This document shows, in pieces, positions 30,117 through 50,448 of a stretch of DNA of 64,000 nucleotides. The first letter of the stretch is position 1; every line of letters begins with the position of its first letter. The stretch is from Undaria pinnatifida (Eukaryota; Sar; Phaeophyceae; Laminariales; Alariaceae), in the NCBI GenBank assembly GCA_012845835.1, contig JABAKD010000029.1, positions 6,544,905 through 6,608,904 on the forward strand, in the 5' to 3' direction. Below the pieces are notes generated by a model, which was given only the letters and a program-made list of their open reading frames with translations, was not told the DNA's origin and did not search any database. The position numbers and the translations under genes were made by a program.

Positions 30117-30497
30117 CTATACCTTTCCGATACTTTCCAAGGCTCCTTCCCTGGTACAGGGTTTCCCCATCCCTTCTGTAGCCTTCGGCTCGCTCCACGC
30201 CCCCATGCCTTCTGCATCGCTTATAACGTTCCACTCCCGCATGACCTCTGTATCATTTATCTTGTTCCATGCCATCAAAGCGACGGCGAGTCTCATCGTG
30301 CCGATGAGGTAGAACACGAGATGGAAGTCGAAGGGGAACAGGTAGCTGCCGTCGATGGAAAACGCGAACATGGCCGAGAAGACCACGGGAGAGATTGTCC
30401 TCGCCAAAGAGGTCAGCGCAGTCGAGATTCCGTTCAGCTCTCCTCGTCGACTCGGCCCCGTAGCATTGTTTATGGCCAGCGAGATGCCAAGGTAAAA
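30117..30497 (-). CDS. Transporter exon 9: helices 11-12 and C terminus
   Basis: Residues 463-588 and the stop codon. Reads FYLGISLAINNATGPSRRG, then the RGELNG motif, helix 11 (ISPVVFSAMFAFSI) and helix 12 (FHLVFYLIGTMRLAVALMAW), ending in a hydrophilic tail of about 45 residues. Acceptor CTTTTCCCTTGCAG has a good pyrimidine tract. Confidence 0.9.
   Translation of the reverse strand, partial: FYLGISLAINNATGPSRRGELNGISTALTSLARTISPVVFSAMFAFSIDGSYLFPFDFHLVFYLIGTMRLAVALMAWNKINDTEVMREWNVISDAEGMGAWSEPKATEGMGKPCTREGALESIGKV

Positions 30498-50448: not shown

What the first reader, a model, noticed from the sequence alone, without database searches (positions are those of the whole stretch)
30117..50448. 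A complete nine-exon ZIFL-type transporter hidden across 20 kb of transposon-filled introns
The exons are 96-424 bp and none stands out as a large open frame, yet reading the minus strand gives helices 1-12 in order with every GT-AG junction and every codon phase consistent (139, 184, 104, 106, 111, 424, 96, 222 and 381 bp; 588 codons plus stop). Eight independent phase agreements make chance very unlikely. Introns make up over 90 percent of the gene, and at least ten repeat insertions sit in them. ZIFL carriers in plants are linked to zinc, organic acid and auxin-related transport; the substrate here cannot be read from sequence.
Basis: partly seen in the sequence, partly recalled or inferred. 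Interest (0 to 1): 0.75.

Follow-up and report, generated by a model that had tools for sequence, protein, structure and literature searches.

The report
Kelp transporter gene in large array
The finding is a real, intact nine-exon gene for a membrane transporter resembling plant zinc-facilitator-like carriers, and it belongs to a family of some 43 related loci in what is probably a kelp genome, nineteen of them strung along 2.2 million bases of one chromosome.

Summary
Phase agreement alone was weak proof, since most exon lengths fit several places. Paralogues are the real proof: two copies on the same contig have identical exon lengths, GT-AG at every junction, ungapped exons, and core dN/dS 0.20-0.29.

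The ZIFL label is partly supported. The protein resembles a rice ZIFL motif consensus (39% over 184 aa, 135 bits) far more than other MFS frames of this assembly do, but it meets none of five published strict ZIFL signatures. 'ZIFL-like' is right; 'a ZIFL' is not shown.

The larger result is the family: 43 strong, stop-free last-exon matches, 19 of them along C36:4.63-6.82 Mb. Best explanation: an H+-coupled efflux antiporter of a small solute (inferred), substrate unknown. A nicotianamine link found no support: no synthase was detected.

The parts
50310..50448 (-). exon 1, start ATG at 50448 (TM1)
   Evidence: conserved in B, C, D; D has an in-frame stop nine codons upstream of the ATG
49218..49401 (-). 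exon 2 (TM2-TM3, motif A WGLVSDRHG)
38293..38396 (-). exon 3 (TM4; starts with the second part of a conserved Arg codon)
37444..37549 (-). exon 4 (TM5, antiporter-type motif GGVLGPGVGG)
36725..36835 (-). exon 5 (TM6)
32566..32989 (-). exon 6 (variable cytoplasmic loop and start of TM7)
   Evidence: loop dN/dS 0.6-2.0 against 0.20-0.31 in the rest
31682..31777 (-). exon 7 (TM7-TM8, EVYSLW...GGL...IGQ)
30965..31186 (-). exon 8 (TM8-TM10)
30117..30497 (-). exon 9 (to TM12, C-terminal tail, stop)
   Evidence: 43 strong matches genome-wide, itself included
38397..49217 (-). intron 2, 10.8 kb, repeat-rich; about 6.5 kb of it (39.46-45.98 kb) has no collinear counterpart in paralogue C
35638..36223 (.). 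dispersed repeat in intron 5, about 590 bp with an A/T run at one end, absent from the same site in paralogues B and C

Best explanation
An intact nuclear gene, probably of a brown alga (kelp Undaria pinnatifida likely), encoding a 588-residue, nominally 12-helix MFS carrier of a ZIFL-like branch. It most likely works as an H+-coupled antiporter that moves a small solute (metal chelate, organic acid, K+ or a signalling or defence metabolite) out of the cytosol, across the plasma or vacuolar membrane, by alternating access. It is one of a large family spread by local and distant duplication; the copies examined keep the same exon plan while introns filled with repeats. Shown: gene model, MFS family, duplication, purifying selection on the core. 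Inferred: transport direction, proton coupling, membrane, substrate class, host.
For: Exon model; MFS_1 E 4.5e-29 over profile positions 3-347 of 347; paralogues B and C with identical exon lengths, D with the same plan, five more with exons 2-9 in order; A/B/C core dN/dS 0.20-0.29, all six pairs of A-D 0.20-0.31; rice ZIFL consensus similarity with controls; relaxed motif A and G-x3-G-P-x2-G-G (PMC3041735 calls the latter the antiporter signature; that it marks H+ antiporters is recalled); distant N-half similarity to proton-driven efflux pumps NorA and Tet.
Against: No transcript evidence could be examined. None of the five strict ZIFL signatures is met. Hydropathy at the cut used showed 8 separate peaks at most, not 12. 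No nicotianamine synthase was detected, so the best-known substrate link of plant ZIF1 (recalled) is not supported here. Exon 1 was not found in five more divergent paralogues within the fetched stretches.
Confidence: 0.75

Rival explanations
1. A true ZIFL orthologue doing what plant ZIFLs do (export of nicotianamine or phytosiderophore-like chelators, K+/H+ exchange tied to Zn and auxin; functions recalled).
For: Collinear motifs and 39% identity to the rice consensus; five family members reach 41-46% over 138-150 aa.
Against: 0 of 5 strict ZIFL signatures; no nicotianamine synthase match in the same genome, 0 candidates (six-frame search, introns could hide it).
Confidence: 0.2
2. A general drug:H+ antiporter (DHA1/TetA/NorA-like) of unrelated ancestry that only resembles ZIFL.
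For: MFS_1, Tet and NorA hits; Gly rather than Ser at the first antiporter position, as in general MFS_1.
Against: Pairwise score to the rice ZIFL consensus is far higher (135 bits) than that of other MFS frames from this assembly (best 38.5 bits) and than the NorA or Tet scores (41.8 and 66.1 bits; different methods, so only a rough comparison); shared FGR-PY-LP and E-SLW-GGL-S-GQV blocks.
Confidence: 0.1
3. A decaying or silent duplicate: intact frame but not expressed.
For: Very long repeat-filled introns; variable loop with dN/dS near or above 1 in some pairs; paralogue D has an in-frame stop in its C-terminal tail, paralogue I has exon 3 matched in two pieces, and a few weak loci look broken.
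Against: No stop, ungapped exons, all splice sites kept in A, B and C, core dN/dS 0.20 (A-B) and 0.24 (A-C).
Confidence: 0.1
4. Chance exon assembly by the reader.
For: Six of the seven internal exons have 5-30 placements of the same length, phase and GT/AG.
Against: Pfam match and conserved structure in eight other loci, fully in B and C.
Confidence: 0.01

Closest known systems
Plant ZINC-INDUCED FACILITATOR-LIKE (ZIFL) MFS carriers (rice OsZIFL1-13 and others)
   Same: MFS_1; motif order; W before motif A; GPxxGG block; long variable loop between TM6 and TM7; clustered duplication, also reported for rice (PMC3041735, passages)
   Different: No CPGC, no PETLHxH, no RxxGP(I/V)xxxR, motif A ends GTR not GR(R/K), antiporter motif starts with G not S; larger family (43 strong loci here, against 13 named rice genes)
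Bacterial drug:H+ antiporters (NorA, TetA)
   Same: Motif A region and TM4-TM5 block align
   Different: Significant alignment in the N-terminal half only; Tet scores lie far under the curated cut-offs (best 25 of 37 families seen)
MFSD10 (PDB 6s4m)
   Same: Weak match over residues 41-182 (E 4.8e-6)
   Different: One stretch only; no C-half match listed

Membership tests
MFS_1 (Pfam PF07690) | score above gathering cut-off over the profile | tested here: met
   101.9 bits against 33.4; profile 3-347 of 347
MFS_1 (Pfam PF07690) | 12 transmembrane helices | tested here: inconclusive
   Kyte-Doolittle cut 1.3 gave 10 peaks, several overlapping, 8 separate at most; no dedicated TM predictor on hand
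ZIFL | W-G-x3-D-[RK]-x-G-R-[RK] between TM2 and TM3 | tested here: not met
   WGLVSDRHGTR: W and D-R-x-G kept, R-[RK] not
ZIFL | S-x8-G-x3-G-P-x2-G-G in TM5 | tested here: not met
   G in place of S; the rest matches
ZIFL | N-terminal C-[PS]-G-C | tested here: not met
   absent from the 588 aa; 58 of 68 plant ZIFLs have it
ZIFL | [PQ]-E-[TS]-[LI]-H-x-[HKLRD] after TM6 | tested here: not met
   no match; KDTQHLK stands at that place by the alignment of motif 2
ZIFL | [RK]-x2-G-P-[IV]-x3-R between TM8 and TM9 | tested here: not met
   no match; PRLGVRLFQR stands at that place by the alignment of motif 5
ZIFL | closer to ZIFL sequences than other MFS_1 are | tested here: met
   135 bits to the rice motif consensus; frames of 60 aa or more from control loci L001-L008 (L001 and L006 overlap; eukaryotic ones are single exons) reach 38.5 bits at most
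ZIFL | groups with ZIFL in a tree | not tested
   no eukaryotic sequence collection on hand; no tree built
ZIFL | Zn, chelator, K+ or auxin-related transport | not testable with these tools
   needs an assay

The most novel reading that the evidence does not exclude
A brown-algal radiation of ZIFL-like exporters: some 43 loci, 19 along 2.2 Mb of one chromosome, with a conserved membrane core and a fast-changing cytoplasmic loop, diversified to export many algal metabolites or metal complexes. It would be a parallel, larger counterpart of the monocot ZIFL expansion, using a separate ZIFL-like branch without the plant Cys and His signatures.
Probability: 0.3. Interest if true: 0.55.

Novelty: new member of a known kind. 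Interest (0 to 1): 0.35.

Why it matters
The single gene is ordinary apart from its spread-out structure. The family matters more: dozens of transporter loci with short exons and long introns are easily split or missed by annotation, and a large exporter expansion in what is probably a farmed seaweed is a lead for metal, iodine or defence-metabolite handling (a guess). The nine-exon plan conserved across the copies examined gives a template to annotate them.

Tried and rejected
Chance exon chain: rejected by paralogues. Viral or prokaryotic origin: scans of viral and prokaryotic contigs with alignment A2 gave 17 and 24 pattern matches, none a relative by tblastn; each scan used two short exact peptide patterns, so distant relatives would be missed. 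Nicotianamine link: no NAS family match, 0 candidates (the control rings in 1 of 14 prokaryote genomes). Positive selection on the loop: dN/dS 0.59, 2.03 and 0.67 for A-B, A-C and B-C with few synonymous changes (5 for A-C), so relaxed constraint is enough and I claim no more. Exon 1 of paralogues E, F, G, I and C19: 0 of 5 found convincingly in the fetched stretches. Literature: searches (1 of 1 paper listed; 20 of 62; 8 of 8; 12 of 34; 12 of 2,733; 2 of 2; 1 of 1; 9 of 9; 10 of 1,590) listed no title or abstract start on a brown-algal ZIFL family; beyond listings I saw only passages of PMC3041735 (12 of 22 places) and PMC7058681 (3 places). The library lacks most subscription journals.

Full report
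Place. The window is G000:C36:6544905-6608904 of an unnamed 511,146,479-base genome in 68 contigs. The size fits the Undaria pinnatifida assembly of PMC7058681 (511,280,173 bases in 114 scaffolds, GC 50.14%; passages seen). The numbers are close but not identical, and nothing else here names the organism, so the host is an inference.

Gene model. Intron lengths are 908, 10821, 743, 608, 3735, 788, 495 and 467 bp. Third-position GC is 0.70 against 0.53 and 0.45 at positions one and two. Homology carries the proof.

Family. A search of the same genome with the protein gave 74 exon matches, of 472 candidates with 74 scored. I fetched 20 stretches around eight other loci. Exon-by-exon tblastn found all nine exons in order in B (C36:6396083-6375596), C (C36:6680670-6667313) and D (C36:5338028-5393361, opposite strand, 55 kb), and exons 2-9 in order in E, F, G, I and C19; of these five, exon 6 is matched only in its 3' part in F, G, I and C19, reads through a stop in E's match, and exon 3 of I comes in two pieces, perhaps a frameshift. 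B and C have exactly the window's nine exon lengths, GT-AG everywhere and intact 588-codon frames. D has the same plan with a 442-bp exon 6 and one in-frame stop in the C-terminal tail. In E, F, G, I and C19 the printed contexts show splice dinucleotides at or within a few bases of most homologous ends; the acceptor of exon 7 in I does not read AG there, and the acceptor of exon 6 was not located in these five.

Selection. Over 588 codons A-B, A-C and B-C have dS 0.16 and dN/dS 0.28, 0.38 and 0.36; outside the loop dN/dS is 0.20, 0.24 and 0.29; in the 131-codon loop 0.59, 2.03 and 0.67. Pairs with D give 0.28-0.31 outside the loop and 0.96-1.16 within it. Exons of A, B and C have equal lengths and align ungapped at 88-99% identity each, while the 5.6-kb 3' blocks that span exons 6-9 and their introns have 61 and 92 gap openings (A-B, A-C). 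Third codon positions are least conserved, 88.3-88.6%.

Genome-wide count. With an exon-9 query, 67 of 67 candidates were scored and 56 rows matched; 43 are strong (71 bits or more, E 3.5e-17 or better), none with an internal stop in the matched part, the window's own copy included; 13 rows are weak, two of them one locus. The 43 lie on C36 (19), C19 (5), C25 (5), C56 (4), C30 (4), C27 (3), C32, C35 and C38 (1 each). The C36 copies span 4,632,967-6,819,707. An exon 2-5 query gave 150 matching rows (150 of 244 candidates scored), in which I count 54 exon-2 places, 20 on C36 and 34-330 kb apart there; some of the 54 are weak. The searches are six-frame and exon by exon, so a locus is not proof of a whole gene.

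What it is. Pfam MFS_1 E 4.5e-29. NCBIfam's best matches are tetracycline and multidrug antiporters far below their cut-offs (best 25 of 37 seen). Solved relatives by sequence are NorA and MFSD10, with vesicular amine transporters weaker (E 0.0055 or worse), significant in the N-half only. A concatenation of eleven rice ZIFL motifs (from the table in PMC3041735, passages seen) aligns at 39% over 184 aa (135 bits) and 25% over 181 aa (61 bits); eight of eleven motifs fall in collinear order, among them motif 7 at z 2.8 and motif 5 at z 4.0, while motifs 8, 11 and 10 do not match. Control: frames of other MFS loci L001-L008 from the same assembly reach at most 38.5 bits against that consensus. 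Those controls are imperfect: four of the eight come from contig C50, which looks bacterial, and the other four are single exons. The five strict ZIFL signatures are all unmet. It is therefore a ZIFL-like carrier, with membership of ZIFL proper not granted.

Mechanism. A relaxed motif A (WGLVSDRHG) and the G-x3-G-P-x2-G-G block are present, and the TM4 arginine is invariant in five aligned family members. By established MFS knowledge (recalled) these suggest proton-coupled antiport. Direction (efflux) and substrate are inferred. No nicotianamine synthase match was found, with the caveat that introns can hide a gene from this search.

Introns. Segments of introns 2, 4 and 5 recur in the window flanks, others at further family loci, and intron 1 holds a local 145-bp duplication. 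One 586-bp stretch in intron 5 has 39 near-full-length matches at 86-90% identity besides itself; only 40 of 6775 first-look candidates were scored. It is absent from the same site in B and C, so it probably inserted after that triplication. About 6.5 kb of intron 2 present in A has no collinear counterpart in C, while most of its inner part is shared with B. Repeats lengthened these introns, but the intron positions are older than the duplications, since all copies examined share them.

Surroundings. Copia-like gag/pol fragments lie at 5.3-12.7 kb and 15.7-17.7 kb and a non-LTR reverse transcriptase fragment at 55.1-56.2 kb; 7 of 10 frames searched had a retroelement hit, only one of them above the curated cut-off. 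ARAGORN reports no tRNA. I saw no second host gene in the ORFs that I searched, ten of the 36 listed.

Verdict. A correct and careful observation of an ordinary kind of gene. The unseen part, a large partly clustered family, lifts interest moderately. The literature listings that I saw (several of them capped) show no paper on it; they cover only an open-access library.

Noticed in passing
G000:C36:4632967-6819707: Nineteen strong ZIFL-like last exons in both orientations along 2.2 Mb; smaller groups on C19, C25, C27, C30 and C56.
   Followed up: partly
window 35638-36223: A roughly 590-bp interspersed repeat with an A/T run at one end, perhaps a SINE-like retroposon; 6775 first-look candidates genome-wide (40 scored), a copy missing at this site in paralogues B and C.
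   Followed up: partly
window 43233-43403: A 171-bp (ACA)n array within intron 2, 57 copies at 95%.
   Followed up: no
G000:C50 (L001, L002, L003, L006): A 200-kb contig with long intronless bacterial-looking frames, probably bacterial contamination in the assembly.
   Followed up: no
G000:C36:5392981-5393361 (paralogue D): In-frame stop shortly before the end of an otherwise intact 55-kb copy with a 34.9-kb intron 2.
   Followed up: no
window 5283-12721, 15709-17691, 55055-56164: Copia-like and non-LTR retroelement fragments flanking the gene.
   Followed up: no
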